Shown one piece after another: positions 398 to 61,800 of a stretch of DNA of 64,000 nucleotides; the stretch's first letter is position 1; each line of letters opens with the position of its first letter. A program made the position numbers and the translations under genes. The stretch is from Telopea speciosissima. Its lineage: Eukaryota > Streptophyta > Magnoliopsida > Proteales > Proteaceae. The stretch covers positions 6,647,307-6,711,306 of the forward strand of contig NC_057920.1 of the NCBI RefSeq assembly GCF_018873765.1. The letters run 5' to 3'. The notes under the pieces are model-generated. The model was not told the DNA's origin. It worked only from the letters and a program-made list of their open reading frames with translations, and did no database searches.

Positions 398-577
398 GGG
401 AAAACGAACACTATCTAGGCACGTGTGGTACACTGCCCCTACGCGAAGACACAGGGCAATTAAAATGACTGTCGTTACCCCAAGTAATTCAGCCTTTTCA
501 TGAGGTGCGACGGTCATTTTACCTGCCTCTGTGTTTGGGTGTAGGGGCAGCGCACCGGATGCGGCGTTCTTTCTCCC
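398..577. repeat. Foldback element with 9-bp target duplication
   Basis: 180-bp inverted repeat starting GGGAAAACGAACAC and ending GGCGTTCTTTCTCCC. It is flanked by TTGATAAAT (389-397) and TTAATAAAT (578-586), a 9-bp duplication with one mismatch, as made by Mutator-like transposases. The core holds AAAATGACTGTCGTTACCCC and the inverted CGACGGTCATTTT. No coding capacity. Confidence 0.75.
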
Positions 578-935
578 TTAATAAATACAATTAAAATCAA
601 ATTAATTTGATATTTTATGATTTTATCACAAAAGACGAGGGATTTTTTTTATTTATTTTTTTTGTTGTTAAAACACGAGGACATTTATAATATGTCAAGT
701 GGGAGAGGCGTGGACGTACAATATGCTATCTTTAATCAACAAAATCATAGAGACAATAATACCCTTATATATTTCATGAAATAACAACTATTACCCTTAA
801 CCCTAGAACTCTTATTCCATCATTATAAATCCTTTATTACGACAAATAAGTACTCAAATGTTACTTAATTAGTCCTCTTCGACCTCTAAATTGTGTATTA
901 TTATTATTATTATATTCTTATATGTATTATATATA
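578..935. other. AT-rich intergenic stretch
   Basis: Strongly AT-rich with a TTA/ATT microsatellite near 898-915. I see no gene or recognisable element. Confidence 0.6.
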
Positions 936-1080
936 CATGTATAGGGGTGCTGTTCTCTGTGCCGCAGCACAGGCTGCGCCCAAGCACATGGGGGTCGGTA
1001 CAATGACCACCTTGTCCCCTTGAGTGGCAGGCCCATGTGCCTAGACGCAGCCTGTGCTGCGGCACAGAGAACATTCTTCC
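936..1080. repeat. Foldback element upstream of the AHL gene
   Basis: Near-perfect hairpin: GTTCTCTGTGCCGCAGCACA (about 949-968) pairs with the inverse near 1050-1071. The core ACAATGACCACCTTGTCCCC is shared with other foldback elements in this window. Instead of a 9-bp duplication the flanks share about 30 bp, beginning TATTATTATATTCTTATATG at 905 and again at 1081. A related arm (TTCTCTGTGCCGCAGGCTG) occurs near 48610. Confidence 0.7.
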
Positions 1081-1399
1081 TATTATTATATTCTTATATG
1101 TACTATATATTATATCATAACATAGGACCAAATGACCAAACAAACTATAGAATATGCCCATAATTATATATTTCTTTCTTCCCCCACATGCCAAAGCCTC
1201 TTCTTTTGTTAATTGCTTCTCTATTAGCCCCCTCTTTCCACCATTTCCTCTTCAAAACCCATCTCTCTCTCTCTCTCTTTTACTTGGGTCTCTACTGTTT
1301 TTCTTCTCAGAAACTTGTGCAAGCTCTGCTCCTTTACTTCTATCAAAGATCTGATCAATCTGGTTTGGAGCCTTGGAGGAGTTACTGATCTTGAAACAG

Positions 1400-1588
1400 G
1401 TAGCTAGACATGATTTATTTATAGGCTTTAGATCTTAGCTTCTTAGCTTCTTAGTTTCAGGGTTTTGGCTTTTCAGAGTTAAATTTTTATTTTATGTTTT
1501 GGATTTATAACTTTAGGTTTGGAATTTCAGAAAAAAAAAAAACAATTCTTGATCTTAATTCCTTCATTATTAATTTCTTGTGTTATAG
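1400..1588 (+). other. Probable 5' leader intron of the AHL gene
   Basis: A donor-like AACAG|GTAGCT lies at 1399/1400 and an acceptor-like TGTTATAG|AGAAAG at 1588/1589, with T-rich sequence between them, about 70 bp upstream of the start codon. The preceding CT-rich tract (about 1261-1280) looks like a plant 5' leader. Inferred from splice-site likeness only. Confidence 0.4.
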
Positions 1589-1657
1589 AGAAAGAGAGAA
1601 GAAGAAAGAAGTAAGAAACAAAAAAAGCTGGCAAGCAAGTGGTGGGAGAGAATAGAT

Positions 1658-2512
1658 GTGGCGATGGCAGGTTTGGAACCAGGCCCAGGTTCTCGTTACG
1701 TTCACCAACTTCACAGACCAGAGTTGCACTTACAAAGATCCTTAGACCTTCAAAACCAAACAACCCAAATCTCAGATTCTAATGAATCACCCGAGAAAGA
1801 CCAGAAATCTGATCCAAACGCAGCCACCACTTCCTCCGCCAATCGCCGGCCACGTGGTCGTCCTCCGGGCTCAAAGAACAAGCCAAGACCACCAATAATT
1901 GTTACCCGTGACAGCCCAAATGCACTCCGATCTCATGTACTAGAAATCTCAGCCGGCGCCGATGTTGTGGAGTCAATATCTAATTATGCAAGGCGGCGAG
2001 GGCGTGCTGTATCTGTGCTTAGTGGTGGTGGATCAGTCGCAAATGTGACGATAAGACAACCTGGAGCTCCGGCGGGGAGTGTAGTTACTCTACATGGGCG
2101 GTTTGAGATATTATCGTTGTCTGGGACAGTGTTGCCACCGCCGGCGCCGCCTGGAGCTGGTGGGTTAACGATATTTTTGGCAGGTGGGCAAGGACAGGTT
2201 TTAGGAGGGAGTGTTGTTGGACCTTTGGTGGCGTCAGGTCCGGTGGTTTTGATGGCGGCGTCATTTTCTAATGCAGTTTTTGAGAGGCTACCGTTGGAGG
2301 AGGAAGAGTCACCGGTGCAGGTCCAGCCTACTGCGTCTCAGTCTTCAGGTGTTACAGGTGGTGGTGGTGGTGGAGGTGGGCAATTGGGTGATGGTGCAGG
2401 TGGTAGCACCGGCGGTGTTCCGTTTTATAATTTGGGAGGTAACATGCCGAATTATCAATTCCCTAGTGATGTTTTTGGTTGGAGTGGAAATGCTGGAAGA
2501 CCTCCACTTTAG
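1658..2512 (+). CDS. AHL: AT-hook motif nuclear-localized (AHL) protein, AHL25-like
   Basis: Single-exon 284-aa protein. One AT-hook ([13 protein letters not shown], about residues 63-75) binds the minor groove of AT-rich DNA. It is followed by a PPC/DUF296 domain (about 85-210) with the family's GRFEIL core and [11 protein letters not shown] stretch, used for trimer formation and contact with other nuclear factors. A Gly-rich run precedes a tail ([12 protein letters not shown]) typical of clade-A AHLs. That clade is known to be intronless and to regulate hypocotyl growth, flowering and gibberellin feedback in the nucleus. An HRPELHLQ motif near the N terminus and the IRQP..GGVVTL-type PPC text recall Arabidopsis AHL25/AGF1 from memory. 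A second ATG two codons on (1664) gives MAGLE, also common in the family. Family assignment is firm; the exact member is inferred. Confidence 0.95.
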
Positions 2513-5550: not shown

Positions 5551-5739
5551 AGGGGAAAGGAACACTACTCAGTGTTGTGCCTGGGCATGTACCTGTGCCC
5601 AGACATAGCCCAGTGCAAAAAGACTGGTGCTGCCTCTGTTCCTTTCTACCTTTCCAAGGGGTAGTGTCGGTCTTTTCGCACTGACCTATGTCTGGGCGTA
5701 GGTACACCCACAGGCACAGCACCGGTTAGCGTTCTCTCT
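5551..5739. repeat. Foldback element with 9-bp target duplication
   Basis: 189-bp inverted repeat. The left end is AGGGGAAAGGAACACTACTC and the right end GGTTAGCGTTCTCTCTC. Flanks ATTTAATAT (5542-5550) and CTTTAATAT (5740-5748) match at 8 of 9 positions. The centre (AAAAAGACTGGTGC and inverted GTCGGTCTTTTCG) is a diverged version of the shared core. Confidence 0.65.
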
Positions 5740-6445: not shown

Positions 6446-6611
6446 AGGAGAGGGATGGGTATGCTAGTGGTATACCGTAAGCTAGCGCCCTATATATGTA
6501 TCTCTCTCTTCCCCTTTTGAAATGACTCCCTTACTCCTCAAAGGGAGGAAGAGAGATAGATACAGAGGGTGCTAGCTTACGGTATACCGCTAGCATACCC
6601 AGCCTTTTCCC
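6446..6611. repeat. Foldback element with exact 9-bp target duplication
   Basis: 166-bp hairpin with arms GGGTATGCTAGTGGTATACC and its near-perfect inverse. Flanked on both sides by TATTTTTAA (6437-6445 and 6612-6620). The core TTGAAATGACTCCCTTACTCC is shared with the group; the arms are unlike those of the other copies, except for half-copies near 6985-7030 and 36025-36058. Confidence 0.8.
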
Positions 6612-6739
6612 TATTTTTAATTAATTCTATTATATCCTATATATCCTGTTTACTTCAATCCCAGGTACCATGGTTAATAATAATGCCATTGTTCAAAGAA
6701 AATTCAAGGGATATTATATCCTATCATTGCGCGTGCTGG

Positions 6740-7030
6740 CATCTCAGTTTGGAATTTGCGCCTTTCATGGGGGGTGGGGCGATCATTTCGTCCCCATCGT
6801 GTTTAGGTTTGGTCTACACCCCCCTTCCATAGAGAACATTTTTCTTAATTTTTAATATAATTTTACTACAATGACTTGCCAAGGAAGAGGGTTCTTTAAA
6901 AGTGGCATAGAGGAGCGCAACGATGAGATGCGGTAGAATGTTTTTGTATATAGAAGATCAACGAGATCATTTCATATGGAGAGTACAAAGATAGAGAGGG
7001 TGCTAGCATACCCTCGATCCTGCTGGCGGC
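6740..7030. repeat. Two partial foldback elements
   Basis: One half (about 6760-6840) has GGGGCGATCATTTCGTCCCC and a TAGAGAACATTTTTC end. A second (about 6960-7030) has ATAGAGAGGGTGCTAGCATACCC, resembling one arm of the 6446-6611 element. Neither has a complete partner arm. Confidence 0.4.
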
Positions 7031-7201: not shown

Positions 7202-7388
7202 AGGAAAAAGAACGCCACCTGATCGCTAGACACACTGTCTCTGCACACTGACACAGGGGCATAGGAAATGACCACCACACCCCTACTCATTCATAGGGTT
7301 CCACGAGGTGCGGCGGTCATTTTGCATGCCCCTAAGTCAGGATGTAGGGGCGGCGTGTGCTACGTGACCAGGTGGCATTCTCTTACTC
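7202..7388. repeat. Foldback element with 9-bp target duplication
   Basis: 187 bp. The left end AGGAAAAAGAACGCCACCTG pairs with CAGGTGGCATTCTCTTACTC. Flanks TTACCTAAT (7193-7201) and TTATCTAAT (7389-7397) match at 8 of 9 positions. The core GGAAATGACCACCACACCCC and inverted GCGGCGGTCATTTTGC match the copies at 1-179 and 398-577 closely. Confidence 0.75.
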
Positions 7389-15400: not shown

Positions 15401-18400
15401 TGGGCTGAATTAGGCACGAAGACAAGGGTACTATGGAAGGAACAAATTATGGGACATGAGTGACATGGGTGAAATGGGGTAATTATGAGATTAAAAAATA
15501 AATAAATAACTAAAAAATAAACCAAAGGGCAAAAGTGCAAAACCGAGAGGAGTATAACATAGTGAAAGGGAAAACTTGGAACAGAAAACAAAATAAGGAC
15601 AAAGGGGGATTATGAACCAATGGCAAGATAATATTGGAAAATCAAATAAAGAGGGTGGGGGCTGGGAAATAGGCATTAAAAACAAGAAATAAACGTGACA
15701 CATGCTACCAGCAACTATCAAGATTCTAGAACAAAGGAGAAAAAGGGATTTCGAGGGTAGGTAACTGTAACAGCCTTGGAATTAATGCTTAGATGATCTG
15801 ATCAATCATCCCAGCCTCTTATTTATAATAAAAACAAATTACAGCAAAGATAGGAATCCCCCCCAATCCTATTCCTACTAGGAATTCCCACTATAACTAG
15901 GAATCCCAAATAGAAATCGTATAGGGGAGAAAAACAGGGAAAAAACAATTAAAAACTAATCAAACTAAAATAAGAAAGGAAAGCCAACTAGGACTAGGTT
16001 ACCCCTAGTGGGTAACGTAGCCTTATCTCAACACTCCCCCTCAAGTTGGAGCAAAGATGTCGATCATGCCCAACTTGACTAGATTGGGATGAAACAGCTT
16101 CCCAGACAATCCCTTAGTGAAGATATCTGCAAGTTGATCAGTAGACGTCACAAAGGGAATGCAAATCAACCCTTCTTCTAACTTCTCTTTGATGAAATGC
16201 CTATCCACCTCAACATGCTTGGTACAATCATGCTGTACTGGGTTGTGTGCGATGCTGATTGCAACCTTGTTGCCATAGTACAACATCATAGGAAGACGAA
16301 TAGGAACACCAAGATCTTGTAGCAGCCCTTTAAGCCAGAGTAACTCACAAATCCCTTGTGCCATAGCTCGAAACTCAGCTTCGGCACTAGAACGAGCAAC
16401 AACATTTTGCTTCTTACTACGCCACGTGACAAGATTTCCACCTACAAATGAGCAATACCCAAAAATAGACTTGCGATCTGCAGAACCAGCCCAATCAGCA
16501 TCAGTGTATGCTTCAATCCGTAGATGGCCATGCGTAGACAAAAGAATTCCTTTTCCAGGAGCTGACTTCAAATAGTGCAAGATACGAAGAACAGCCTCCA
16601 TATGTGAAGAGTAGGGATCATGCATAAATTGGCTCACAGTACTCACGGCGACAGCAATGTCAGGACGAGTGTGTGAAAGATAAATCAGCTTCCCTACAAG
16701 TCTTTGGTACCGGCCTTTATCAACAGGCTCACCCTCTTTCTCCTTGAGTCGAATAGTAGGGTCCATAGGAGTATCTAAAGGATGACAGCCAAACAACCCG
16801 GTCTCAACCAATAAATCGAGGACATACTTCCTCTGGGAGAGAAAAATGCCTTTAGAAGATCTGGCTACTTCAATCCCAAGAAAGTATCGTAGTTTCCCTA
16901 GATCCTTAATCTCAAATTCTTGTCCAAGGAAGGTCTTCAACCGTCCGATCTCATCACCATCATTGCCAGTAACCACTATATCATCAACGTAGACTATAAG
17001 AACAGTGAGTTTTTCACCAACCCTCTTTATAAAGAGTGTGTGATCAGCATTACTCTGCTTATAATCCACAGAAATCATGGCCTTGTGGAACCACCCAAAC
17101 CATGCTCGAGGTGACTGCTTCAGCCCATAAAGTGCACGCTTCAATTTACAAACTTTTCCTTGGTTTCTGTCACAAGATAATCCTGGTGGAATGTCCATAT
17201 ACACCTCCTCATCCAGTGTTCCATTTAGGAAGGCATTTTTTACATCTAGCTGCTGCAAATCCCATCCAAGGTTGACTGCACAAGATAATAACACACGAAC
17301 AGTATTTAACTTGGCAACAGGTGCAAAAGTTTCCTGGTAATCAATGCCGTATGTCTGAGTGAAACCTTTGGCCACGAGTCGTGCCTTATACCTATCCACA
17401 ATGCCATCCACCTTCTGTTTCACCACAAACACCCATTTGCATCCAACGGTTTTCTTCCCAGGTGGAAGAACCACAAGCTCCCATGTGTTATTTTTTTTCA
17501 GGGCTTCCATTTCTTCCATCATAGCTGCCTTCCACTTTCCGTCTAATAAAGCGTCCTGCCAATTGTTAGGAATACGAACAGAAGAAAGAGAGGAAACAAA
17601 GGCACGAAAGGATGGGGAAAGGGAATCATAAGAAACAACATGAGATATCGGATGCTGAGTGCAAGATCTGACACCTTTGCGAAGAGCAATAGGTAAATCA
17701 GGAACATTACCAGGTGGAGAGGCAGGTTCTGGATCTGGGTTCGGCAATTGGATGGGTATTGGAGCTATACTTTCAGTGTGATTAGCTTTGTTTTTAGACT
17801 TAGCACGACCACGTTTAGCCTCAAAATCAGCTGGCTTCCCATGTAATTTCCAACACTGAGCCTTAGTGTGATATGGTTTGTGACAATGCTCACACTTAAC
17901 AGGCTCTTTGGTAGTAGTAGTAGAAGTAGCAACACTGTCAGCAGAAGCAACAGGAGTAGAACCAGCAGTCTGGAAGGCTGATCTCTCAACTTTGGGAGTG
18001 ATCATCATGGCAGCCCTGCGTGTCTCTTCACTGTGAACATAAGAAAAGGTCTCCTCTAGAGTAGGGAAAGGAACCCGTCCAAGGACTTGCACCCAAATAG
18101 GGTCATAGTCATCATTGAGGCCAGCCAGGAAATCATAGACACGGAATTGGTCTACATAGGTGTGGTAGGCAGAATATCGGCAGCAGAGTAGGTCGAAACC
18201 GAGCATAGTGATCCAATTGTTGCCATAAACACTTGAGGGTAGCATAGTATTTGGTGACAGACATCTCCTTCTGAGTAGTGTTTTGGAGTGTCTTTCTAAT
18301 TTCATAAACCTGAGCACCACTACCTGAACGACCATAAGTGCCCTTGACAGCTCTCCATATTTGTGTAGCAGTGTCAAGGAGAAGATACTGACTAGAGAGG

Positions 18401-21400
18401 TCAGTGGTCATAGAGTTTAGAATAAAGGGCATTACCATTGCATCATTGGCAGCCCATTTAGTACGAGCACCCCTTCTTGATGGGTTGTTTGGTGGTGCCG
18501 AGAAGATGGCCGGTGAGTCCCCTTCCACCATCGTTAGGGATAATGATCGGCCCAAATTAAGTAGTTTGTACCATCAAGCTTGATGACAAGAGATAAGGGA
18601 GAAAATCAGACCTTGTTTGATCTCCTCCAGAAGTAGCAATAGTCATCTCTGAGTCACCCATGATTCAGCCAAGCAGTAGTAAAAATCAGATCTTCAAACA
18701 ACCTGATTCGAGTGTGAATAATGGGTTTTGAAATTGCAGAATTTTCAGCCTGCAGAATGGGCTGAAACTGATGTCGAGTTTCCCTCTAATAGCAGGGAAG
18801 ATATCTGCCAAAAATTAGCTCTTTCTAATAAGCCAATAAAAAGCCCTAAATTTTTGCCAAATTTAGAAATAAAATCTGATTGCAGAAACCCTGATTGCAG
18901 GAAAAAGATGCAGAAAAAAAATGCAGAATTGGATCTAAACCAATGCTGCAGTCTTCAAACAAGGACTGGTGCAGACCACTAATAGCAGGAACCAAACTCC
19001 ATAAGTGCAGAAATCAAACTCCAGTTGAAAAATAGTTCGATCTCCAAGGATGGAAAAAACCTGCCGGCAGAAATAGGTCACACCTCTGTTCTTTGATCTT
19101 CAATGAGGTGACATTGAGGGCAGCAACTAAATTTGCATTCTATCACCTCATAGTTGCTGCCCTGATGGAGAGAAAGAGGCCGAGAGTGGTGGAGAAGAAG
19201 AAAAAAAGAAAAAACTGAGAAATAAGAGAGAGGAGAGAACCAGAAATCGAGAGTAGCTGTTCCTAGATCAGATTAGGCTCTGATACCATGTAAACAGCCT
19301 TGGAATTAATGCTTAGATGATCTGATCGATCATCCCAGCCTCTTATTTATAATAAAAACAAATTACAGCAAAGATAGGAATCCCCCCCAATCCTATTCCT
19401 ACTATGAATTCCCACTATAACTAGGAATCCCAAATAGAAATTGTATAGGGGAGAAAAACAGGGAAAAAACAATTAAAAACTAATCAAACTAAAATTAGAA
19501 AGGAAAGCCAACTAGGACTAGGTTACCTCTAGTGGGTAACGTAGCCTTATCTCAACAGTAACCAAGGAAGAAGATGGCAGTAACCAAGAATGAACCTGCA
19601 CCTTCTCTTCTTCAACCTTCTACCATGAGATTGCAGAACAGTAGCAGATGATGAAATTGTAGCAGTAGCAGTATATGAATACTAGCAGCAAATCGATGAC
19701 AGCACTTGTTCTTCAATTCGTATGCAGCAATTAGCAGAGCCAGAAAAAAATAGATAGTTGATCTTCTCATCACGTACTTGGTCTGAACTCTAGTTCGATG
19801 GCTTGAACCATCAAATCACGATACAGCAGCAGCAATATACGATAATCAATTCAGAAAATAGTAGGAGCAGGAATGATCTTCATACTAATCAACCAAAATC
19901 AGTACATGAAACCCTAATTCTTTTTCTATGAACTAGGGTTTTCTTCCTCAAAACAGAGACCCAAAAACGACTCTCAGAACGGCTATCACAGAGAGAATCA
20001 GGTACTGGTTACAGCTTTGATACCATGTAACAATATAGAGACTAATAAACCAGTAACAGAAGTAAGAGAGACGAGATAAAGGAACTCTGTAACAAGAAAG
20101 GAAGCAGAACCGGTGAGTCTATGAGGTCACCCTATGACTATATAAATATAGAAAGAATACAACTTATAGTAGGAGTCTAAAACAGACTCAAAGAAGGAAA
20201 CAAAGAATCCTAGACTATCTAGAACTATTAAACAGAAACACAACTTTACATAAATCGGTAGACGCTTTAACAGGTGGCTTAGTAAGCCTCCCCCCTCCCT
20301 GGAAGACTCTTCCTTTCCTCAAACGTCTCCTTCATAATGTAATGAAATCAAAGTTAATCTCTTTAACCAAGAAATAAATTGTTAATTTCAATATCCCTTA
20401 AGTAATCCTTAAACAATAGACGCCTACCCTACCACCAAATGATTGCCGGGGACTGAAAAAACCCTGCTAATACTCTGGTTATAAGATATTTCGATTTTGA
20501 GTGATATTCCTCTAATTGGTGGCTTAGTAACCACACCTTCCCCCCCCCCCCCCGGGACTTTTCCTTTCCTCAAACCTCTCCACCATAATGTAATGGAATC
20601 AAAAGATAATCTCTTTAACCAAGAGAAAATTTGTAATTTCAATATCTCTATTTACTTTGGTAGTTTCTTGACAGATAGTTGATTAAGCAAGCTTGTTATT
20701 GTTGAACGTTCCCCCCAATTGGTGGTTTGTCCACTGTTTTCTCTATTAGTGGACACTTTATCTTGTGAAACCAAGGGCAATAATGGACATGTGAAATCCA
20801 AAAACAAGACATGCAAAGCCACAAACCATAAAGAAACACAGACTAGAGGAGAAGAGTGAGCAAACCCAAGAGTCGGGGGTTAACCACAAAGGTGGTTGGG
20901 TGTGTGGGGCTCCTAGACATCATATGAGCTGCCCTATCATTCACCCAAATAATTGATATTACCGTTTTCATTCTCAAAATGTCATAATCTTTGTATAACG
21001 AGTGAGTGTACAAGAGAAGGATCTATTTACAACAACATTTAATCAAACAACTAGGACATGCAAGTGCTTCATCTCATAGGATTTATTATTGAAAAAGATC
21101 CCAACCAAGTAGCCTTGCATAATCACTTTGTGATTCACTTGTTTAGGGGGGAAATAAACCTTGGTGATGGTTTGGCCATCAGCAAATAGAGATGAGGGGG
21201 GAGGGGAGGCAGTTGGTGATCAATGACCAACAGATTTTGTACCTAAATCTGTGGTTTTAAAATAAATATTAGGAAAGAAACACAAAGGGTGAATTCCGCT
21301 TCAGTTGCAGTAGTACCAACTATCCTATAATTTCAGTCGTACAAATCTGAAATCATTGGCTGCCCTCTTGGAACTCAGAGTGTGCATTCTTACATGGACT

Positions 21401-25070: not shown

Positions 25071-25255
25071 GAATTTTTTTCCTCTCTTGTCCGCTGCCCG
25101 AACAGGACCGTGCTGTCCCCTCACATGGGGGGCGTGAAATGATGACTTAACCTCGCCCAGGCATTGTGTGCGGGCAGGGGGTAAGGTCGTCATTTTGCAC
25201 CCCCATGTGAGGGGAAAACACGATCCTATCGCGGACAGGAAAAGATAACGATTCC
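25071..25255. repeat. Foldback element with exact 9-bp target duplication
   Basis: 185 bp, flanked by TTAAAACAT (25062-25070 and 25256-25264). Arms GTCCGCTGCCCGAACAGGA and CCCCTCACATGGGGG pair with inverses near the right end. The core GTGAAATGATGACTTAACC and inverted GGTCGTCATTTTGC. Confidence 0.8.
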
Positions 25256-27317: not shown

Positions 27318-27494
27318 TAACACATCTTAGTCTAGAGTCTAAGCTGAAATCGATTGATAAACTACTCAATCCTTAACATCAAATCGAGGCTGATTAGCGA
27401 TTGCTATGAACAAATTTTTTTCCCTCTTATTGATTTGGCTATCTGCCACTTATCAAATACTTATAAAAAAATTAATATAATTAATAGAAGAAAA

Positions 27495-27590
27495 AAAAAG
27501 GCTACTTGGTCACACTCCCTACGCCCAAACACATGGGTAGCAAAATGACTAGTGCAGTGGCCACGCGTACCAAGTATCATTCTCTCCCCC
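27495..27590. repeat. Short foldback element, degenerate
   Basis: GGCTACTTGGTCACAC pairs loosely with GTACCAAGTATCATTC, and the middle has ACACATGGGTAGCAAAATGAC, resembling the shared core. Shorter than the other copies. Confidence 0.4.
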
Positions 27591-30912: not shown

Positions 30913-31078
30913 AGAAGAAAGAACTCTGTCTGGAAGTGTGGCCTACGCCAGCACTCCCATGAGTCTATCTCTCTCCTCCCTGTATGAAAAAACATCTTTA
31001 CCTTGTTTTGAAGTGGAGACAGATAAACAAATGAGATTGCTAACTTAGGCCAAAGTACCAAACAAAAAACTACTTCCC
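30913..31078. repeat. Foldback element, same family as 32695-32865
   Basis: 166 bp with ends AGAAGAAAGAACTCTGTC and AACTACTTCCC. Flanks ATAGTTTAA and ATAATTTAA match at 8 of 9. It shares AGTGTGGCCTA and CACTCCCATGAGTCTATCTC with the copy 1.8 kb away. Confidence 0.75.
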
Positions 31079-31485: not shown

Positions 31486-31683
31486 GTAATTTGGATCCTC
31501 TACTGCCGAGCTGCCCGGCAGGGCTGGCAGGACCCTACTGCCAAGACATAGCAAGGTGATAAATGACCATCTTACCCCCACTTGGGTAAGGCGCTTGAGC
31601 AAGGGTAAGGTTGTCATTTACTGTCTTGCTATGTCTTGGTAGTAGGATCTTGCCGGACAACTCGACAGTAGAGGATCAAGGTC
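31486..31683. repeat. Foldback element with 9-bp target duplication
   Basis: 198 bp. Arms ATCCTCTACTGCCGAGCTG and inverse; the core ATAAATGACCATCTTACCCCC and inverted GTAAGGTTGTCATTTA. Flanks AGAAAAAAG and CGAAAAAAG match at 8 of 9. Confidence 0.7.
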
Positions 31684-32194
31684 CGAAAAAAGGAGGGAAG
31701 ACTGAGGAGAGCCTTTTAGCCCAAATATTTGAATTCCAAGTCCAATTTTCCCAAGTTTTTTGGGTTTTACTTCTGTGCATAGATGATGACATCTGAGTTG
31801 GAGGTTAAGAAATTTGAACCTTTGACCCTCTAGTGTTGAAGATCAGATTTATTTCATGTAAGGTTAAGAGAGAATCTTTTAATCCAAAGGTTTTGGTGGT
31901 TGGATGTGATTCCTATCAATTGATTCTCTTCTCTCATATTGAAGAAAACTTACACCGATATATGGATGTCCTGGTCCTTGAGGGGTTATTTGTTGGATAA
32001 GTTATGGGAAAAGGTTCTCTTGGTCGCCCTTTGGGTAGGGTACGCTAGCTAGAACCTCTATGTCTATCTCTTTCTTCCTCACATGAAATGCCCTCGTTGC
32101 CTTCTAATGAATGATACTATTTTGCTCCAACTTATTGAATTGGTGTGCTCCTCTATGCCACTTGCTCAGCAAACCCTCTCCGATAAATTTTATT

Positions 32195-32370
32195 GGGAAA
32201 CGTTTTCTATTCGAGAGCGTTGCTCCTGCGTATGGGGAGAGGGCAATGGGAAAGCGAGTGAAAGCATCAAGTGGGATGTTATTTGCATATTCCATGCGAG
32301 GCGGGATGGTCATTTCAACTTCCATATGTTTGAGCACAAAACATGCACTCCTAGACGGTTCTTTTTTCCC
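32195..32370. repeat. Foldback element within another foldback-like stretch
   Basis: GGGAAACGTTTTCTATTCGAG at the left pairs loosely with GACGGTTCTTTTTTCCC at the right; the middle has GGATGGTCATTTCAAC. Flanks match at only about 7 of 9. The surrounding 32010-32545 has another candidate outer pair (CTTTCTTCCTCACATGAAATG and TTTCACGGGGAGGAGAGAG), so one element may sit inside another. Confidence 0.4.
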
Positions 32371-32694
32371 AAGTTTCATATATATCAAATTAGGGACATA
32401 AATGTGATTCTCTGCCTTCTGATAGTGTGACTTACCCTAATGCTCCTTCTCTCTCTCTCTCTCTCTTCTCCCTCAAACAAAGGATAAAGTTGTCCTTTCA
32501 CGGGGAGGAGAGAGATAGACTCATAAGTAAAGGCAGTAGCAAAATATTGTCCAATTCATGGGGAAAGGAAAATTTTTCTTTACTCCCAAAATGAGTATTA
32601 GTAATAAAAGGTCGCATCATGCTTCATACATTTTCATCAATGGAATATGTATTCTTTTCAAAATAATAAGAAAATACTTTTGATTATTATTTAT

Positions 32695-32865
32695 GGAAAA
32701 AAGAACTATGTTCGGGAGTGTGGCCTATGCCAACACTCCCATGAGTCTATCTCTCCCCTCTCCATTTGAAAAGACACTTTTGCCTCTTTGTTTTGAGGAG
32801 AAAATGAATAGAAGGATGAGAGTATTGACGTAGGCCACACTCCCAGACTGGAAACTACTTCCCAT
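32695..32865. repeat. Foldback element with exact 9-bp target duplication
   Basis: 171 bp, flanked by ATTATTTAT (32686-32694 and 32866-32874). GGGAGTGTGGCCTATGCC pairs with GTAGGCCACACTCCC. The core region TTTGAAAAGACACTTTTGCC is a diverged version of the group core. Confidence 0.8.
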
Positions 32866-35762: not shown

Positions 35763-35945
35763 CAATTCGACTCCTCTATTTTCGCCTTCCCCTACTGCCG
35801 TGTGCGTCCCACACACAAGCAAGGCAGAATGTACCGGCTTACTCCTGCCTGAGCGGGGGTAAGGTGGTACTTTCCGTTGTGCTTGTGTGTCGGCCGTGGG
35901 GGTGCAAGGAGGTACCGGGCAGGCGGAAGTAGAGGAGTCGGATCC
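35763..35945. repeat. Foldback element with 9-bp target duplication
   Basis: 183 bp. AATTCGACTCCTCTATTTTCG pairs with the inverse near the right end, ACACACAAGC with GCTTGTGTGT, and GGGGGTAAGGTGGTACTTTCC lies at the core position. Flanks ATAGATATA and ATAGATAAA match at 8 of 9. The stretch 35995-36058 is a half-copy resembling the 6446-6611 element (GTGCTAGCTTACGGTATACC). Confidence 0.7.
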
Positions 35946-36278
35946 ATAGATAAATCGGGTGGAACATCATACATGAGGGGTAAAGAAGTCATTTCAAATG
36001 AGAAAAGATAAATACAAATGGTGCTAGCTTACGGTATACCGGCGGTGTGCCAGCCTTTCCCCAACCTTTAAATTTTAAAAAGCTGTTACCAAAAATCCAA
36101 CTGTACATGAGAAGTTTCTTTATTCATTTGTTGGATTTTCTAGGTTAGAAGTAGCTGCAAAAATCCAATACGAAATTTTATATAAATTATTTTGCAAGAG
36201 ATCTTCTTCAGTTCTTCAATATACTGCTAAAGTAACAGTTAGGATCTTTCTTCCCAAAGAACCAGAAGCTAGCGAACT

Positions 36279-46066: not shown

Positions 46067-46841
46067 CTATTCAATCAACCGGGTCATCCCTTCCAAGGTG
46101 GGAGCGTCCTCCACTCCAGCTGCTGCTGCTAGGATCTGCTTTTCCATGTTAGCTTGCCATCCTGCAAATCAAGTTCATTCAGAAGCAATAAAGCCATTAA
46201 TCTCTTTCAATTCAATACCAATAGATTCAAATTCGAATAACGGTAAACTTAAATTAATTGACAACCTATGTTCATGTCGAATCCTTGGCTTTTGAGCTCT
46301 CTGTACTCTTGGCAAAGAGCACATTGCTCACACAAGCAATGAACCCGGCAATCCCCACAGGGTTCCCCACAAGGACTCTCTTCGAGGCCAAATCGCTGTC
46401 TCATACATAACCGATTGCCAGCCGAGAAGATGCATCCTATGCCTGGTAAGAACATGAGCAGTGCATAGATTGCTCCTTGTGAAACACAGGAGGTTCCCTC
46501 ATTCATGATCTCTGAGATTTGACCAAAGGTAATGCATGGACACCACATTGTTATGCAACCTGTGAAAGTTGAAGCAATCCATTATATGGTCAGATTGTGA
46601 ATATGTTTTGGACAGAAAAGATATATGGTAGCATGGTAGGAGAGGAGCAAAATTAGATTAATTCAGACATACAGTTCTTAACATCGGCACCGCAGTCGAA
46701 TAGGCCGGATGACCAAGGAACCGAACCATCTGGATTCTCAGGAGGAGGAGTTGAAGAAGCATCGAAATGTGGAATAAGTTGTGCCGTGACAGAGGAAGCT
46801 GGAGTGAACTTCCAATTAGCATTTCTCTCTGACGAATCCAT
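46067..46841 (-). CDS. PLAC8 / plant cadmium resistance-like protein, copy A
   Basis: Three exons, 46841-46673, 46559-46266 and 46161-46067, give 185 aa with phase 1 joins at GT/AG sites. Cys-rich membrane protein of the PCR/FW2.2-like family, whose members export zinc and cadmium or limit cell number. Visible: a Pro-rich N terminus (STPPPENP), WSSGLFDC, the signature CCITMWCPC (built across the first splice), a hydrophobic segment ([13 protein letters not shown]), the second Cys cluster with [19 protein letters not shown], and a tail W.ANMEKQI...APTLEGMTR. All key cysteines are present and the tail is family-like, so it looks functional. A near-duplicate lies 1.6 kb further along on the same strand. 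Confidence 0.93.
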
Positions 46842-47159: not shown

Positions 47160-47345
47160 ATTATCCTTTCCAATTCCTGAAGTGTGGCAGTGCGGTAGTA
47201 CTAGGTGGAGATGTCGACACCTGGCAGCTGCCGAATCTAATGGTCCATATCAATGAGCTCGGATGGTTAGATGCGGTAGTTGCCAGGTGTCGACATCTCC
47301 ACCTAGCACTGCCACACTACCACACTTTAAGGAATTGGAGAGGAT
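47160..47345. repeat. Foldback element in the flank of copy A only
   Basis: ATCCTTTCCAATTCCTGAAGTG pairs with the inverse at the right; GGTGGAGATGTCGACACCTGG pairs with CCAGGTGTCGACATCTCCACC. Copy B reads GAGAGTCTATAGGTCGCGG straight across the site, so this is an insertion after the duplication. No clean 9-bp duplication seen and it lacks the TGAAATGACC core. Confidence 0.75.
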
Positions 47346-48293
47346 ATTTTTCCTATGGATCGCGGATAAAATTTAGCTGCTAACTGGGTAGCAGCAACAT
47401 TCGGAGGGGTGCCAAAAAAACCCAGCCAGTCTGAACCCACTCGAACCTGTACTAAGCTCAAATAGGGCTTGGGAGGGGGGTAAAGGTGGAGGAGTTGGAG
47501 GTGGTGCAGGAGGTAGGGCTTCATGGTGGTGATGGTGTTAAGGATGGGTGGCAGTATAGGGTATCTACATTGTAAAAGAAGATGATGATTTGGGAAAGAT
47601 GAGGGCATTTTGGTCTTTTCAAATTTTAGCAAATAGGTTAGGTCAATTAGGTCTTTTCAAAATCTAGAAAAAATAGAAGAAAGGGTAGTTTGGTCATTTT
47701 TTAACATTTTAACCCCTGGTATGGACTTAAATGACTTTAGGGGGGTAAAGTAGGGGTGGTACGTGGAATTTTCAGGGGTGCGTGTGGACTTAATAAAACT
47801 TTAGGGGGGCATGAGGAATATTGGGTACATTTTAGGGGGATATGCGTATTTAACCCTAATTATTTTAAAAGGGAAAATGTTCTATATATGAGCAATTGGA
47901 TTAGGGTACGCTAGCATTTTTTGTATGCATCAATCTCTCTTCCTCAAATGAAATGACCTAATTACCCTCAAATGTACGATATTGTTTTGTCGTATTTCAT
48001 TGGTATGCTCTTCATAATTTTAAGTATCAGTACTAGAATGACTGTATCAATATCAGTCGTGATACGATACCGATATGTATCACTGTTGTCAGCCAAAAAT
48101 TAAAAAAATTGAGCATCTTTTTGGCTCATTCAACAGATATCATCGATCGATACATATCCATATCGTATCAGTTTCGAAATTGGCTGATACCCATTCCAAT
48201 ACATGTGAACTTGATCAGAAAACCTACTTCCATTATTTAACTTATAAACAAACACAAAACACCCTTTTCTTACAATTTTTTATTTTGTTTTCG

Positions 48294-48433: not shown

Positions 48434-49373
48434 TTAGTCACTCTTACAGGCCATGCGACTCGTGCTTTGGGGCACGGTGGGAGCCTTCTCCACTCCAGCT
48501 TCTGCTGCTGCTTCTAGGATCTGCCTTTCCATGTTACCTCTTCTCCATCCTGCAAATCATCAAGCTCATTCAAGAGAAGCAATTAAATTAAGGGCTTATG
48601 TTCTCTGTGCCGCAGGCTGCGCCCAAACACATGGGCCTGTCACTCAGGGGCAGGGTGGTTAATGTGTCCACCCCCATGTGTCTGGTCGACATTCTCCCTT
48701 AAGCAGCCTCATTGCAAAAGCAGGGGTAAGGCTGCATACATATGACCCTCCCAGACCCTACAGTTGCGGGAGCCTTGTGCACTGGGTATGCCCTTTTTAA
48801 CAAAAGATTCAAATTCAGAGAATAAGGGTTAAGAAGTGAAATTAATTAACCTTCGATGTTCATGTCGAAACCACGGCTTTTGAGCTCTCTATACTCTTGG
48901 CAAAGGGCACATTGCTCACAGAAACAATGAACCAGACAATCCTCACAAGGACTCTCTTCGAAGGCAAATCGCTGCCTCATACATAACCGATTGAGAGTCG
49001 AGCAAAAGCAATTTAAGCCGGGTAAGAACATTAGAAGTGTATAGATTGTTCCTTCTGAAACACAGTTTGCATTCTCAAACAGGGTCTCTGAGATCTGACC
49101 GTAGGTAATGCATGGACACCACATTGTTATGCCACCTGTGGGTGGAAGTAGATCGATGAGAAGCAATCCATCCAAGGAACAACATTAGATTAATTAAGAC
49201 TTACAGTTCTTAATATCGGCACCGCAGTCGAAGAGGCCGGATGACCAAGGAGCCCAACCATTTGGATACTCAGGAGGAGGAGTTGAAGAAGAATCGGAAT
49301 CTAGAAGAGGTTGGGTGGTGGCAGAGGAAGCTGGAGTGAAATTCCGGTTAGCATTTCTCTCTGATGAATCCAT
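48434..49373 (-). CDS. PLAC8 / plant cadmium resistance-like protein, copy B
   Basis: Same three-exon layout as copy A: 49373-49205, 49135-48851 and 48549-48434, phase 1 joins, 189 aa. Visible: N terminus [35 protein letters not shown], a hydrophobic stretch (LLMFLPGLNCFC), [19 protein letters not shown], and W..GNMERQILEAAAEAGVE. Two departures from copy A: the second Cys of the CC pair is Gly (CG), and the C terminus ends APTVPQSTSRMACKSD instead of the family-like APTLEGMTR. Intron 2 carries a foldback and a SINE. Probably expressed, but the Cys loss could alter metal handling; that last point is inference. Confidence 0.9.
48600..48705. repeat. Foldback element in intron 2 of copy B
   Basis: TTCTCTGTGCCGCAGGCTGCG matches one arm of the element at 936-1080; ACACATGGGCCTG pairs with the inverse CCCCCATGTGTCTGG. 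Copy A's intron lacks it. Confidence 0.6.
48716..48803 (+). mobile_element. Au-type SINE, 3' part, in intron 2 of copy B
   Basis: GCAGGGGTAAGGCTGCATAC, GACCCTCCCAGACCC, TTGCGGGAGCCTTGTGCACT and GGGTATGCCCTTTTT match the Au SINE 3' end and the copy at 10151-10240. Confidence 0.7.
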
Positions 49374-49529: not shown

Positions 49530-49615
49530 TGAAATCCGTGGCGGCTTGGGGTTGAGCGCCATTGTGTTGTGCTCAAGTCTCCATTCAAAGGCCGTTATGT
49601 GGATTTCATGCCAAT
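49530..49615. repeat. Short foldback element in the flank of copy B only
   Basis: GGCATGAAATCCGTGGCGGC pairs with GTTATGTGGATTTCATGCC. A second GATACAAATCC/ATGAAATCC-rich piece follows to about 49750. Copy A has no equivalent at this point. Confidence 0.55.
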
Positions 49616-49847
49616 TTAATGTTTAGTAGATGAGTTCAATTTAAAATTCAAAAATAGCAAATCGCTGTCTCAATATGAAATCCAAATGGCGGCCCATGAA
49701 TCGAGTGCAGCACGATGACCGCTCAACCACATGTCACAGAGGATACAAATCCTCATTTGTATACCTTTTGTGGGCATATAACACGCTACGACAACGATAA
49801 AGATTTAAAAAAATAATAATAATAACTTGGAAGAGTTTTTATTTTAT

Positions 49848-49987
49848 GGGAAAAGTTTTCATACACGCGTGTGCGTGTATGTGAGAGTGAGAGAGTGGGA
49901 GTTCATGGCATTAATTAATGAATAAGGATTTATGATTTTTCCAATTCTTTGTGAGAGGGATCAAGACCGTGTATGAAAACTTTTCCC
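49848..49987. mobile_element. MULE-type short element with exact 9-bp duplication
   Basis: 140 bp, terminal inverted repeats GGGAAAAGTTTTCATACACG, flanked by TTATTTTAT on both sides (49839-49847, 49988-49996). Same family, opposite orientation, as 60210-60346; both share GGCATTAATTAATGA-like and CTTTGTGAGAG text inside. Confidence 0.85.
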
Positions 49988-49996
49988 TTATTTTAT

Positions 49997-51486
49997 TTTT
50001 ACATTTTAAACGTGGTTCACACTCTTGCACACTTTTTTTTCAGTTTTTTGTGTGTATAAAACGCCAAAACAACTTGAGAGAGTCTATAGGTCGCGGATAA
50101 ATTAATTTAGCTGCTAGCTGGGTAGCAGCAACGTTCTGTCTTGAGCCCGAACAGGGCTTGGGCTGAACTATTCAATCTGCAGGGTGGGCTTGGGTTGGGA
50201 TTTTGAAGCCTGCAGTTGTGCTGGGCTGGGGCCGGGTTGTGGCATTGGGCTGAGTTCAGTCCAACCCAACCCGATCCTATATATACTATGTGACTATTCT
50301 ATGATATAAAAATATGGGTAGTCTTTCATAGCACTATGAAGAGTGAAATGTATTGTTTCACTATGACTTTTTTACCCATATATTGTATCCATATTGTTTA
50401 GTATTTTTAGGTTAGTTATAGGAATTGCACACAAAGAAAACTGTACCAAATTCCTACGTTGGCTCCCCTCACCCCTTCCCCGTCCCCGTCCTTCTCACAG
50501 CACGTACCCCCTTCCCCGACACCAGCTGTGCCCTTTGCCCCACTCCATTCCACCCCACCTCCGCTATCCCCTTTACCAATTAGAGCACACGTAGGGGCAT
50601 CAACATATATGCGATTTTTAATTTCATAGAGAACAGGGCAGTACTTTCACACGCTATTGTGTTTGGGTGCAAGGGCCACACGACCAAGTAGCGTTATTTG
50701 TCCTATTTTCATTTTAGCATCCACATGGACACCATCAATCCAACAATGTGTGATATTTGATATATGTAATGTGGATTGACAAATTTTATAGCATATTCTC
50801 TATCTACGTATAAAATTAGCATAAATACATATTAAAATAATTTAATCCTCTAATTAACTAACCTACTAATTAAGCATATATGTACCCACAAGACCATGGT
50901 TTCAATAATCGGGATTGGATCGGCCGATTTGAATCAGAATTGGTTGAAGCCGATCCTGATTCGGACTCAGGAAAATGAAGGTTCCTAAATTTCCTCTCTC
51001 CCGCAGAAAAGAAGTCTCCAAGCCCTCCATTCTCCTCCACAAACACACTGCTTAAAACAGGCAAGAGAGAACCCAAAAATAACAAACAATGACTGAGTCT
51101 CTCACCATCAATTCATCGACCAATCTTTGACCTATAACAAAATTTTCTTTGTTCTGTCTCTCTTCTTTCCTTCTTTCTCTCTCTTTCTCAATATCTTTCT
51201 TCTTCAATCAATTCTCTCTTTACGTACTTCCCCATTTGTTCCTTCACTAGGTGGTAGAAAGGGCTTCTTCAATGATCACATCTTCTTCAACCTACCACCA
51301 ATTAAACCAACCTTTCCTTTAGAGTTTTTTATACAGCCATTTCTCCAGTTTTACAAGACCCAAATCTGTTTAATTAAATCTCTCAAAATAAAAATGGTTT
51401 AGTAAGCTTCTTTCTTATGGCGGTTTTATGATCTGGGTAAATTGGGTTCAGCCCAGAAGACATCATCTTTGATGCTGGTTTGATCT
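49997..51486. other. Upstream region of the CSLD gene
   Basis: GC-rich hAT-like repeat text (CAACCCAACCCGATCC, GGGCTGGGGCCGGG) at about 50140-50280; a C-rich stretch 50460-50580; a partial foldback 50630-50705; GATCGG-type repeats near 50905-50960. From about 51130 the sequence becomes TC-rich (TTCTTTCCTTCTTTCTCTC), typical of a plant core promoter and leader. Confidence 0.45.
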
Positions 51487-51556: not shown

Positions 51557-51611
51557 GAAAAGTGCAGAGAAGAAGCATTTGCAGAACTGAAAGGTTGAAG
51601 AGAAAATAAAA

Positions 51612-57990: not shown

Positions 57991-58075
57991 CTTCTACAAT
58001 TATTCATCATAGTAGATCGAAGAAGTAATATATATATATATACTCTTTACTTGGAACCATAGCCATAAAGCATTG

Positions 58076-58507: not shown

Positions 58508-58561
58508 TATCTCTATGACAGTATCAGCAGCAACAGCAGAAGAATCAATAGTAGTTGATGG

Positions 58562-58610
58562 GCTTGGACTTGGACTTGGACTTGGACTTGGACTTGGCCT
58601 TGGCCTTGGT
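58562..58610. repeat. Hexanucleotide GGACTT/GGCCTT microsatellite
   Basis: About six GGACTT units then two GGCCTT units; on the minus strand it lies 55-100 bases before the start of the membrane protein and would be in its leader. Confidence 0.9.
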
Positions 58611-58734
58611 TGCCTGAAGAGGAAGAACAGATGAATAGCAGAGAAGGTAGCTATGAAGGCCTTGGTATATATGCTTCATGACTTCCATATCGTCTGATTT
58701 TCCTTCGTCTCCTTCCAGGCTCCAGCAGCACCTT

Positions 58735-58865
58735 CAGTTTTATAGAGTTATTAGGCAATTCACATCCCCTATGGACAGCAAGCCGCAGCTTTAGCTTTAT
58801 GGAGTTATTAGGCAATTCACATCTTCTACGGGCAGATCTTCTATGGGTTACGGGCAGCAAGCCGT
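58735..58865. repeat. Two tandem units, imperfect
   Basis: TTTTATAGAGTTATTAGGCAA...CACATCCCCTATGGACAGCAAGCCG is followed by TTTTATGGAGTTATTAGGCAA-like text ending GGGCAGCAAGCCG. About 60 bp per unit, with an extra TTCTA.GGG.. insertion in the second. Confidence 0.7.
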
Positions 58866-59886
58866 GGACAAGTATGACCAGTGTGATTGACTGTCATAAT
58901 CTTCCCTTTCTCCCTTTCTTTTTGGATGGGAAAAAAAGTCGCAGCGCGGTAGACAGGGAAAGTGAGTTAAACACACCGCTAAATACACGCTGTTTGTTTG
59001 CCCTGGGAAAAAAATTTTCGTCCTCCATCACTATCGTTAGAATGATGGCAAACAAACAGTGACCATCCGATCCTAAGGTGTGTTTGTTGACTAGATCGGA
59101 ACTTTGGGTTTTTTTCAGTCGGGAAGTTATTTGTTTGGGGTCCTTCTATTTGTCACTATGAAGCAATGTTCAAAATCCAAGTATTGGACTCACGATCGGT
59201 CATGGTCGAAACCTTTTCAGATCAGGATTGGATCGATTCAAATCGGTCAAGATCGGTAAAAAAAAACCCCCAAAATCATTTTTTATGGATTGGGTCATGT
59301 ATCGGCCAGAGTTGATGGGTGTTGTGATATCGGGATCAGATCGACCGATATTATTTGGATCGGATCGGTCAAAATCGATTGGTATTGATCAAAATAATAT
59401 AAAAAACTAAAAAAAAAATATTCAGTTGGATCGGTCAAGGATCGGATCAGATCGATCGATCCAATTGAGTTGAGTGATCCAATCAATGATCCAATCAAAC
59501 CTTATTGTATCGGTCAAATCTTGGGATTGGCCTCGACCGATACCAATTCGATCCAACCAATATCGGCCAATCCGATCCTATATCTCAAACCATGCTATGA
59601 AGAGTGAAATGGATTGTTTCACTCTACCGTTTTTGCCTATCTTTCTCATAATTTGGAGATTTGGACAATAAAAGGGGCCCATCAGATTCGGATAAAAAAA
59701 CACGCCCACCACTGCACCGTGGCAGAAGCTTCTGTCTGTTTTTTTAATTTTTTGATAGAAGACAAAAGCGTCTGCGTGGGCTAAATTCTTCTTTAAGACC
59801 TAAAGCTTTGGGTCTTCACGTGCTTTCTTCGAAAAACACAAATTGGGATTTGAGAAATCAAAGCGGGTTTTACCCTTTTACAAGGC
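58866..59886. other. Intergenic DNA with GATCGG repeats
   Basis: 59170-59600 is full of degenerate GGATCGGATC, GATCGGTCA and CCGATACC strings, like the hAT-like short elements, with no boundaries I can fix. A short foldback with AAACACACCGC and CAAACAAACAGTG is near 58965-59060. No gene. Confidence 0.5.
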
Positions 59887-60564
59887 AAGGGTATCAATCG
59901 GTTCCATTTCGGGTATTTAGTTTGGTTTCGATTTGGTTCGAGAGAGTGTTGTTGTGATTCAAAAACCAAATCAGTTTTGAAATTCGATATTCAAATCGAA
60001 TTTGTTCGGTTGATTTGATTCCAATTCTTATACGGTTCTATTAGGTTCTTACACGGTTCAGTTTCTATTCCTCTACTCAATCCATACCTATAATATTATC
60101 GTATAGTATAATAATATTATAAAATCTAATACTAATATTAATAATATATATTATAATATATTAATATTATAATGATACACTACAATCTATTAGTATTATA
60201 ATAAAATAAGGGGAAGGTTTTCATATGTGAGAGGGTCTCTCACAAAGAAATGAAAAAGTCAAAAATCCCCACTCATTAATTAATGTCTTGCAACTCCCAC
60301 CCTCTCACATACACGGTTTATATGACCGTGCATGAAAACTTTTCCCATAAAATAACATAGTATAATATACTAATATCCAAATTCAGTTCGTTTTCGGTTC
60401 TAGAATTCGGTTCCTATGCTTGATTCGAAACCAAACTAAGAACCGAATCGGTTCTGAAATCTAATATTCAAATCTAACTGAATTTTATTTGGTTCAATTT
60501 GATTCAACTTATTCAGTCCGATTTCGATTTCGATTTTCAGCTCCGGTTCTAATTTGCACCCTTA
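59887..60564. mobile_element. hAT-like non-autonomous element
   Basis: Starts AAGGGTATCAATCGGTTCC and ends GGTTCTAATTTGCACCCTT, with GGTTCGATTT-type ends. The 60210-60346 MULE-type element lies inside it. Target duplication not seen. Confidence 0.5.
60210..60346. mobile_element. MULE-type short element with exact 9-bp duplication
   Basis: 137 bp, GGGGAAGGTTTTCATATG at the left and GCATGAAAACTTTTCCC at the right, flanked by ATAAAATAA on both sides (60201-60209, 60347-60355). Internal text matches 49848-49987 in reverse. Confidence 0.85.
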
Positions 60565-60723
60565 CTCACAACCCCCTTGTACCCCCTCCCCCTCCCCTTC
60601 TAACATAATATGAGAGTACAAGTACTACCATTTGCAGCCATCACCACCACTATTATTGCATATCCATTCACACACACCCTTAACACTCAAAACAAGTTGA
60701 ACCTATTCTCTCCATCTCTACTC

Positions 60724-60900
60724 GGAAAATTATCATTTCCATTTGTTTGCCCCTCCATTTCCTCTATTTCATCTAATAGAGGAGAGTGGACCTCACCCGG
60801 GCAATGTGTTAGGGCAGGGGGGAGGGTGGTCATTTCAACCCCCCTATGAGATGAAATGGAGGAAATGGAAGGGCAGATATATGGAGACGATAAAAATCCC
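60724..60900. repeat. Foldback element with 9-bp target duplication
   Basis: 177 bp, arms TGCCCCTCCATTTCCTCTAT and inverse, ATTATCATTTCC and inverse. The core is inverted: GGTGGTCATTTCAACCCCCC. Flanks TCTCTACTC (60715-60723) and TCCCTACTC (60901-60909) match at 8 of 9. Confidence 0.75.
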
Positions 60901-61215
60901 TCCCTACTCCCCCTTCTTGAGTTGGATGATCATTTTGTTTAGACTTCTACAGCCAAAGGTGTCTTTACTATCTCTTCATCCAATATACATGAGAATCTTC
61001 CTAGAAAGTACCTAGTTGTGGCAAATCTCATCCATGTTGATGCCCTTGTACATTTCCTCATTGACGCCATGCTCATGTAAGGGCTACATGACCTGGCAGC
61101 AATCTCTAATCTTTTTTTAGAAAAAAAGATGTTATTTGGTCGTGTACACCTATGCCAAAACACATGGGTGTGTGAAACTCTTTTTTTGCATACTATGATC
61201 GCCATTATTATTGCA

Positions 61216-61800
61216 TAGGGAGAATAGCCTAGATCTACTAATTAAAAAAAAAAAATTTACAAAATTGGTACTTACGGAGTATAAATTATATTTTACACTC
61301 ACAAGTTATGAGGTTGAAAATTTAGGAAAAAAACCAAAAAAAATTTAGGAAAAAAGATCTCTACTTGGTGGTGTTTCTTATGACCTCTTACAGGACACCA
61401 TGAGATGGTGTCTTTGCCCCTGTGTATCTAGCATCCTCACCCATTGACTCAGACGCTTGTGTAGAGATCATGCGACCAAGTAGAGATCTCCTGCCTAAAA
61501 ATTTATTACCAAATCCCCAATTAAATTAAAAAAAATAAGTAAACTGCCTAAAATACCCCCTAACATCCTTTCTTCTTGTGCTTCGTCTCTCTCCTTTCTT
61601 CCTTCTTCCTTTCTTTGACGAAGGAACACCTCTGCAACCACTCGTTCCTCCCTCCTCCCTCCTTCCCTGTGCAACCCCACCCTACCTTCCTCCTTGAAAA
61701 CCCGCCCCACAGCACCACTGCCATCCACCCCCTCCCTTCCTCTCCCACTTTCTTTCCCTGCACGCCCCACCATGCTTCTTCCTTAATAAATCATTTAATA
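61216..61800. repeat. Dispersed repeat, copy 2, with an insertion
   Basis: Matches 57715-57990 on both sides of 61348-61496: ATAGCCTAGATCTACTAATTA, GTATAAATTATATTTTACAC, and TTACCAAATCCCCAATTAAA then CACCACTGCCATCC. The interrupted copy gives the empty site for the foldback element. Confidence 0.6.
61348..61496. repeat. Foldback element with exact 9-bp duplication, core absent
   Basis: 149 bp, GGAAAAAAGATCTCTACTTGG at the left pairs with GACCAAGTAGAGATCTCC near the right. Flanked by AAAAATTTA on both sides (61339-61347, 61497-61505). The centre GACACCATGAGATGGTGTC is an extra hairpin rather than TGAAATGACC. Confidence 0.8.

What the first reader, a model, noticed from the sequence alone, without database searches (positions are those of the whole stretch)
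398..61496. A group of foldback elements with a shared core, unrelated arms and 9-bp target duplications
At least ten elements of 149-198 bp have 9-bp flanking duplications: 398-577, 5551-5739, 6446-6611, 7202-7388, 25071-25255, 30913-31078, 31486-31683, 32695-32865, 35763-35945, 60724-60900, 61348-61496. Four are exact (6446, 25071, 32695, 61348) and the others match at 8 of 9. The inverted arms of most have nothing in common (AACGCCACC, TATGCTAG, GTCCGCTGC, ATCCTCTACTG, AATTCGACTCC, CCATTTCCTC). Yet most carry TGAAATGACC (or a diverged form) and its inverse GGTCATTT plus a C-rich run at the same central place. In ordinary MITEs the ends are conserved and the centre drifts; here it is reversed. 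Nine-base duplications are the mark of Mutator-like transposases. One reading is that the enzyme recognises the hairpin fold or core, or that arms are swapped or re-templated. I know of no named family with this design.
Basis: partly seen in the sequence, partly recalled or inferred. Interest (0 to 1): 0.75.

Follow-up and report, generated by a model that had tools for sequence, protein, structure and literature searches.

The report
Old Mutator-type foldback MITEs, plant DNA
The hairpins are real short plant transposons of the well-known Mutator foldback kind; their outer ends are conserved after all, so the design is mostly ordinary, although a shared inner motif between strongly diverged arms is genuine and unexplained.

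Summary
The window is plant DNA. All 11 named hairpins have 9-bp flanking duplications (8 or 9 of 9; chance 0.035% each without shift), so they are real insertions. The inner motif AAATGACC is real too: 7 of 11 carry it at 7/8 or better, against a mean of 0.5 in shuffled hairpins. That the ends are not conserved is wrong: anchored on the duplications, the outer 12 bases match 40% between elements (25% expected, maximum 28% in 2000 draws). Arms change in matched pairs in A1, and in four elements the two arms group together, while 30913/32695 shows plain descent by side. Best reading: several old subfamilies of MULE-type foldback MITEs, moved by a transposase encoded elsewhere and acting on the conserved ends, like MuTAnT in Medicago. 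The core is probably a retained subterminal motif about 66 bp from each end; its role is unknown. No MULE transposase was found in the window and no genome was available.

The parts
1..179 (.). family A1 foldback element, cut by the window start; right end GTTCTCTTTCCC
   Evidence: aligns with 398 (z 24.8), 5551 (17.3), 7202 (16.7); hairpin
193..366 (.). diverged A1 element: left arm and core clear, right arm probably decayed; possible TSD AAAATAATA/AAACTAATA 8/9
   Evidence: left half in the A1 profile built with it, E 1.7e-14; right end only E 0.38; TSD from a wide search, weak alone
398..577 (.). family A1 element, TSD 8/9, core in both arms
942..1081 (.). foldback of another subfamily, core in left arm only; no clean 9-bp TSD (flanks share a longer AT-rich direct repeat)
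   Evidence: arm shared with 48591 (z 14.0)
5551..5739 (.). family A1 element, TSD 8/9
   Evidence: its two arms group 98/95
6446..6611 (.). A2-like element, TSD exact, core in left arm
   Evidence: arm shared with 35970-36062
6764..6846 (-). core plus one diverged arm, other arm missing
   Evidence: weak profile hit E 0.006
6963..7011 (-). A2-like fragment
   Evidence: E 9.8e-07
7202..7388 (.). family A1 element, TSD 8/9, core in both arms
25071..25255 (.). family B element, TSD exact
27487..27590 (.). internally deleted A1 element, possible TSD TAATTAATA/TAATAAATA 8/9
   Evidence: (in the model)
30913..31078 (.). family A2 element, TSD 8/9, core diverged
   Evidence: z 44.2 with 32695
31486..31683 (.). 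family B element, TSD 8/9, core in both arms
32006..32100 (+). left half of an A2-like element related to 47869; a terminus-like stretch on the other strand lies at about 32357-32370
   Evidence: E 9.6e-08; z 17.8 with 47869; no TSD found
32412..32550 (.). decayed A2 element
   Evidence: z 17.1 with 32695; no TSD found
32695..32863 (.). family A2 element, TSD exact
35763..35945 (.). family B element, TSD 8/9, core diverged
   Evidence: z 11.4 with 31486
35970..36062 (-). half element: core plus arm of the 6446 type, other arm missing
   Evidence: in the model; z 25.4 with 6446; no TSD found
47869..48014 (+). decayed A2-like element; possible TSD 8/9 from a wide search
   Evidence: E 8e-06
48591..48700 (.). 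decayed relative of 942; no TSD found
   Evidence: z 14.0
50628..50702 (-). A1 half; possible TSD 8/9 from a wide search
   Evidence: E 3.6e-08; z 8.8 with 398
60724..60900 (.). family B element, TSD 8/9, core in right arm
   Evidence: z 19.6 with 25071, mostly core side
61120..61177 (+). A1 fragment related to 27487
   Evidence: E 1.1e-05; z 13.9
61348..61496 (.). foldback with conserved left end and exact TSD; no close relative in the window (best z 3.9), no core at 7/8

Best explanation
These are several old, diverged subfamilies of non-autonomous foldback MITEs moved by a Mutator-type (MULE) transposase encoded elsewhere in this plant genome. Shown: insertion with 9-bp AT-rich duplications, conserved outer ends, families related through their arms (A1, A2, partly B), an inner motif starting about 66 bp from the end in most elements, and paired changes of the two arms in A1. 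Inferred: the transposase binds the conserved ends and perhaps the inner motif; the arm between is a tolerant spacer that drifts; the two arms stay alike because each subfamily descends from a near-perfect palindrome, founded or re-homogenised by repair within the element. The copies are mostly old, since the two arms of one element now match at 56-77% (71-81% with free-end alignment).
For: 9-bp TSDs at 8/9 or 9/9 in 11 of 11. Outer 12 bases conserved, 0 of 2000 draws as high, for all 11 and for each terminal class (the classes were drawn after seeing the ends). 30 of 136 pairs among 17 elements at z above 4. Further decayed copies by profile and pairwise score. 22 of 57 pairs of the A1 stem changed on both sides against 10.8 in shuffles, 0 of 500 as high, four elements. 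In B all four within-element arm identities (0.65-0.76) exceed all 24 between-element ones (max 0.57). Precedent: MuTAnT, foldback MULEs with 9-nt TSD, 90% of them 200-300 bp (PMC4486113, passages).
Against: No MULE transposase domain at E 0.01 in 30 six-frame pieces of the window, so no partner was seen; a decayed one could be missed. The ends of B differ from those of A, so one enzyme for all is not shown. Between families the arms are at background, which common descent must explain by long divergence. Arm pairing in the tree is unresolved for A1 apart from 5551, not tested for 25071, and contradicted by 30913/32695. 61348 has no relative beyond its ends.
Confidence: 0.82

Rival explanations
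1. One reading: the enzyme recognises the core or the folded hairpin, and arms are swapped or re-templated while the core is kept.
For: Core far better conserved than the middle of the arms in A1 (0.80 against 0.33); between families arms 20-50 at background while the core is shared; profile hits of the A1 model on the inner arm and core of B elements; arms of 5551, 31486, 35763 and 60724 group by element.
Against: Outer ends are conserved; A2 conserves arms more than the core and 30913/32695 descend by side; 4 of 11 elements lack a core at 7/8.
Confidence: 0.06
2. Bipartite signal: the transposase, or an accessory protein, binds both the end and the inner motif about 66 bp in; the arm between is a free spacer. 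(A finer version of the best explanation, not exclusive of it.)
For: The ten good motif copies start 59-76 bases from the terminus, mean 66.4, sd 5.1; between families end and motif are shared while the arm between is not.
Against: Not all copies carry the motif; a constant position follows also from common descent.
Confidence: 0.3
3. The hairpins are kept as RNA, as precursors of small RNAs, so pairing is under selection.
For: Paired changes in the A1 stem; strong folds.
Against: No Rfam match in the window; TSDs and ends mark mobile DNA; arms of single copies have decayed to 56-77%; paired changes also follow from palindromic founders.
Confidence: 0.05
4. Chance hairpins chosen by eye.
Against: TSD null 0.97% per element even with +-2 shift, 11 of 11 observed; end and core nulls exceeded.
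Confidence: 0.01

Closest known systems
MuTAnT (Medicago truncatula MULE foldback family, PMC4486113; passages read)
   Same: Foldback hairpin made of two long TIRs, 90% of copies 200-300 bp, 9-nt TSD, G-rich distal end, a quarter of copies lacking much of one or both TIRs.
   Different: MuTAnT targets TA microsatellites and has a putative autonomous element; here sites are AT-rich but not TA runs, and no partner was seen. Sequence divergence of the two sets was not compared.
Tm1 (Mutator/foldback family of root-knot nematodes, PMC3169594; abstract and one results section read)
   Same: 9-bp TSD, foldback TIRs with both conserved and variable motifs, MITE-like members, Mutator-type predicted transposase.
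   Different: Tm1 arms vary in the number of a repeated motif; here arms vary in sequence. The two TIRs of a Tm1 element average 93% identity over the compared parts; here 56-77%.
FARE (Arabidopsis foldback family placed with MULEs; known here only from PMC4486113 passages, paper not held)
   Same: Foldback elements with long palindromic ends.
   Different: Not compared.

Membership tests
MULE-derived MITE | target duplication of about 9 bp | tested here: met
   11 of 11 at 8/9 or better
MULE-derived MITE | terminal inverted ends shared across copies | tested here: met
   outer 12 bases 0.40 against 0.25, 0 of 2000 draws; two terminal classes
MULE-derived MITE | short, without coding capacity | tested here: met
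   104-198 bp for elements with an 8/9 or better TSD; judged by size, some short open frames cross them
MULE-derived MITE | ends shared with an autonomous element encoding a MULE transposase | not testable with these tools
   no genome held; no MULE domain in the window
MuTAnT | insertion into TA microsatellites | tested here: not met
   none of the 11 named duplications is a run of TA
FARE | sequence relationship to the Arabidopsis family | not tested
   paper not held and no plant sequence collection at hand

The most novel reading that the evidence does not exclude
A lineage of MULE foldback MITEs in which only the outer end and an inner motif about 66 bp in are selected, while the arms between are repeatedly rewritten as matched pairs by snap-back or cruciform repair, so that arm sequence turns over completely between subfamilies but pairing is renewed at the birth of each.
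Probability: 0.2. Interest if true: 0.5.

Novelty: new member of a known kind. Interest (0 to 1): 0.25.

Why it matters
It corrects an apparent reversal of MITE anatomy: the outer ends are conserved as in other MITEs. What stays of interest is that end and inner motif outlast the arm between them, and that arms of old subfamilies changed in matched pairs. A whole genome could show whether arms of foldback MITEs are renewed as pairs or simply descend from separate palindromic founders.

Tried and rejected
Half elements as separate mobile units: 193-366, first taken for a half, probably has a decayed right arm (E 0.38) and an 8/9 duplication; 35970-36062 gave no duplication. For 6764-6846 one 9/9 match exists at 6613, not taken because it lies beside element 6446, in AT-rich DNA, with no terminus-like sequence after it, with other bounds, found none. 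The 8/9 duplications of 193, 27487, 47869 and 50628 come from searches over hundreds to thousands of boundary pairs, so they are weak alone. A capture reading of 32006 to about 32370 was dropped for lack of a duplication.

Of the 30 pairs above z 4, one (31486 with the unrelated MITE at 49848, z 4.3) is taken as chance. In one search the matrix hits above 10 number 35 against 13-21 in six random sequences, but the 15 inside listed elements are largely the training copies, and the 20 outside are not above the null. One motif-sampling run of four missed the core.

Paper searches (9 made) found no report of this inner motif; two looked for its letters: 7 papers, all judged irrelevant from the listing, and 919 papers with 10 listed, none relevant. 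This does not show that it is unpublished. A passage in PMC2955051 (passages) notes that paired mutations of both ends may restore symmetry and mobility; that is another possible reason for paired changes. One 19-base arm word had no exact match in viral or prokaryote contigs, and one gene stretch none in plasmids, as expected for plant DNA. tRNA and Rfam scans gave none.
Full report
What the window is. Open frames match cellulose synthase (CSLD-like by my reading), PCC domain, PLAC8, calcineurin-like phosphoesterase, pyridine-nucleotide-disulphide oxidoreductase (thioredoxin-reductase-like by my reading) and a copia reverse transcriptase: a plant nuclear genome. No genome is held, so all evidence on copies is from 64 kb, and the species is unknown.

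The insertions are real. All 11 named elements have flanking 9-mers at 8/9 (seven) or 9/9 (four). Random placements of the same lengths reach 8/9 in 0.035% (20000 draws), or 0.97% with +-2 shift (4000 draws). The match stops on the left in 11 of 11 and on the right in 9 of 11. The left 9-mers of 15 catalogued elements, one of them (942) without a true duplication and one (49848) of another family, are 90% A+T, while the 11 named elements are 42-59% G+C.

The ends are conserved. Anchored on the duplications, with no freedom of alignment, the first 12 bases of the 22 termini match between elements at 0.399; random 12-mers from the same elements give 0.250, maximum 0.284 in 2000 draws. In seven elements (398, 5551, 6446, 7202, 30913, 32695, 61348) the value is 0.544, with G at position 2 and at position 9 in 13 of 14 each. 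In the other four (25071, 31486, 35763, 60724) it is 0.417, null maximum 0.372. The split was made after looking at the ends, so the class values are favoured; the value for all 11 is not.

The arms: related within families, not between. Among 17 elements (11 named, four further copies, two hairpins of other design), 30 of 136 pairs align at z above 4, on 100 shuffles a pair. A1: 1-179, 193, 398, 5551, 7202, with 27487 and perhaps 50628 and 61120. A2: 30913, 32695, 32412 and more loosely 6446. B: 25071, 31486, 35763, 60724, much weaker; 25071 with 60724 aligns on the core side only, and most B arm blocks are at 0.32-0.48 between elements. Smaller pairs: 6446 with 36062 (z 25.4), 942 with 48591 (z 14.0), 32006 with 47869 (z 17.8). 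61348 stays alone but for its ends. Between families, arm positions 20-50 match at 0.377 as best of 7 offsets against 0.357 shuffled, while the outer 12 bases reach 0.377 without any freedom and the 6 bases after the core octamer 0.420. Half-element profiles built from these copies recover their member copies and some further decayed ones, from E 9.6e-08 (32007) to 0.02 (48607); E-values of members are not independent.

The core is real but not universal. AAATGACC at 7/8 or better: 10 of 22 arms, 7 of 11 elements; shuffles average 0.5 elements, maximum 4 in 1000, also when the hairpin is preserved. The octamer was taken from the same data. Motif sampling gave z 4.6, 5.1 and 10.4 in three runs and failed in a fourth (z 2.4). 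Good copies start 59-76 bases from the end. In A1 the core is the best block (0.80; arm minimum 0.33); in A2 it is not (0.52; arm blocks up to 0.71); in B an outer arm block leads (0.67; core blocks 0.61).

How the arms evolved. In four A1 elements, of 57 stem pairs 22 have changes on both sides against 10.8 in shuffles (0 of 500 as high); sliding the partner by 1-3 columns gives 1-8. The structure was derived from the same alignment, which favours it. In B, within-element arm identity is 0.65-0.76 and between-element at most 0.57 (4 and 24 pairs). Trees group L with R in 60724 (100/99), 35763 (93/94), 31486 (82/86) and, in A1, 5551 (98/95); the other A1 arms are unresolved and 25071 lies at the root. 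Against this, the R arms of 30913 and 32695 group together (100/99) and their L arms match at 0.81, while within-element identity is 0.57 and 0.56. So copies within a young subfamily descend by side, and arms of older lineages have been renewed as pairs. Palindromic founders or homogenisation explain both (inference); selection on RNA is not needed.

Most likely mechanism. Cut-and-paste by a MULE-type transposase at the conserved ends, inferred from the duplications and ends; no such transposase was seen in 30 six-frame pieces of the window. The inner motif may be a second binding site or merely ancestral sequence; these data do not decide.

Comparison. MuTAnT of Medicago (passages) is the same kind: foldback, 9-nt duplication, mostly 200-300 bp, a quarter of copies defective. 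Tm1 of nematodes (abstract and one section) has 9-bp duplications and TIRs with conserved and variable motifs. Long TIRs of Mutator elements hold transposase binding sites and promoters (PMC3310237, abstract and discussion). The finding is a new member of that kind, with strongly diverged arms.

Noticed in passing
49848-49987: A different MITE with ends GGGAAAAGTTTTCATACACG, exact 9-bp duplication TTATTTTAT and no core; probably also MULE-type.
   Followed up: partly
47164-47344: Hairpin with 61-nt arms 89% complementary; no 9-bp duplication found; its end is not significantly like family B (z 3.2).
   Followed up: partly
49563-49720: Another hairpin of unrelated sequence, no 9-bp duplication found.
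   Followed up: no
one of the ten pieces aligned, place not resolved: Match to the C-terminal domain of NADH dehydrogenase subunit F (E 6e-10), perhaps an organelle DNA insertion.
   Followed up: no
16041-18573: Copia-type retrotransposon remnant: reverse transcriptase in this stretch; a copia gag match on the minus strand, place not resolved.
   Followed up: no
46249-46581 and 48846-49184: Two similar neighbouring open frames, the first matching PLAC8; likely a tandem duplicate.
   Followed up: no
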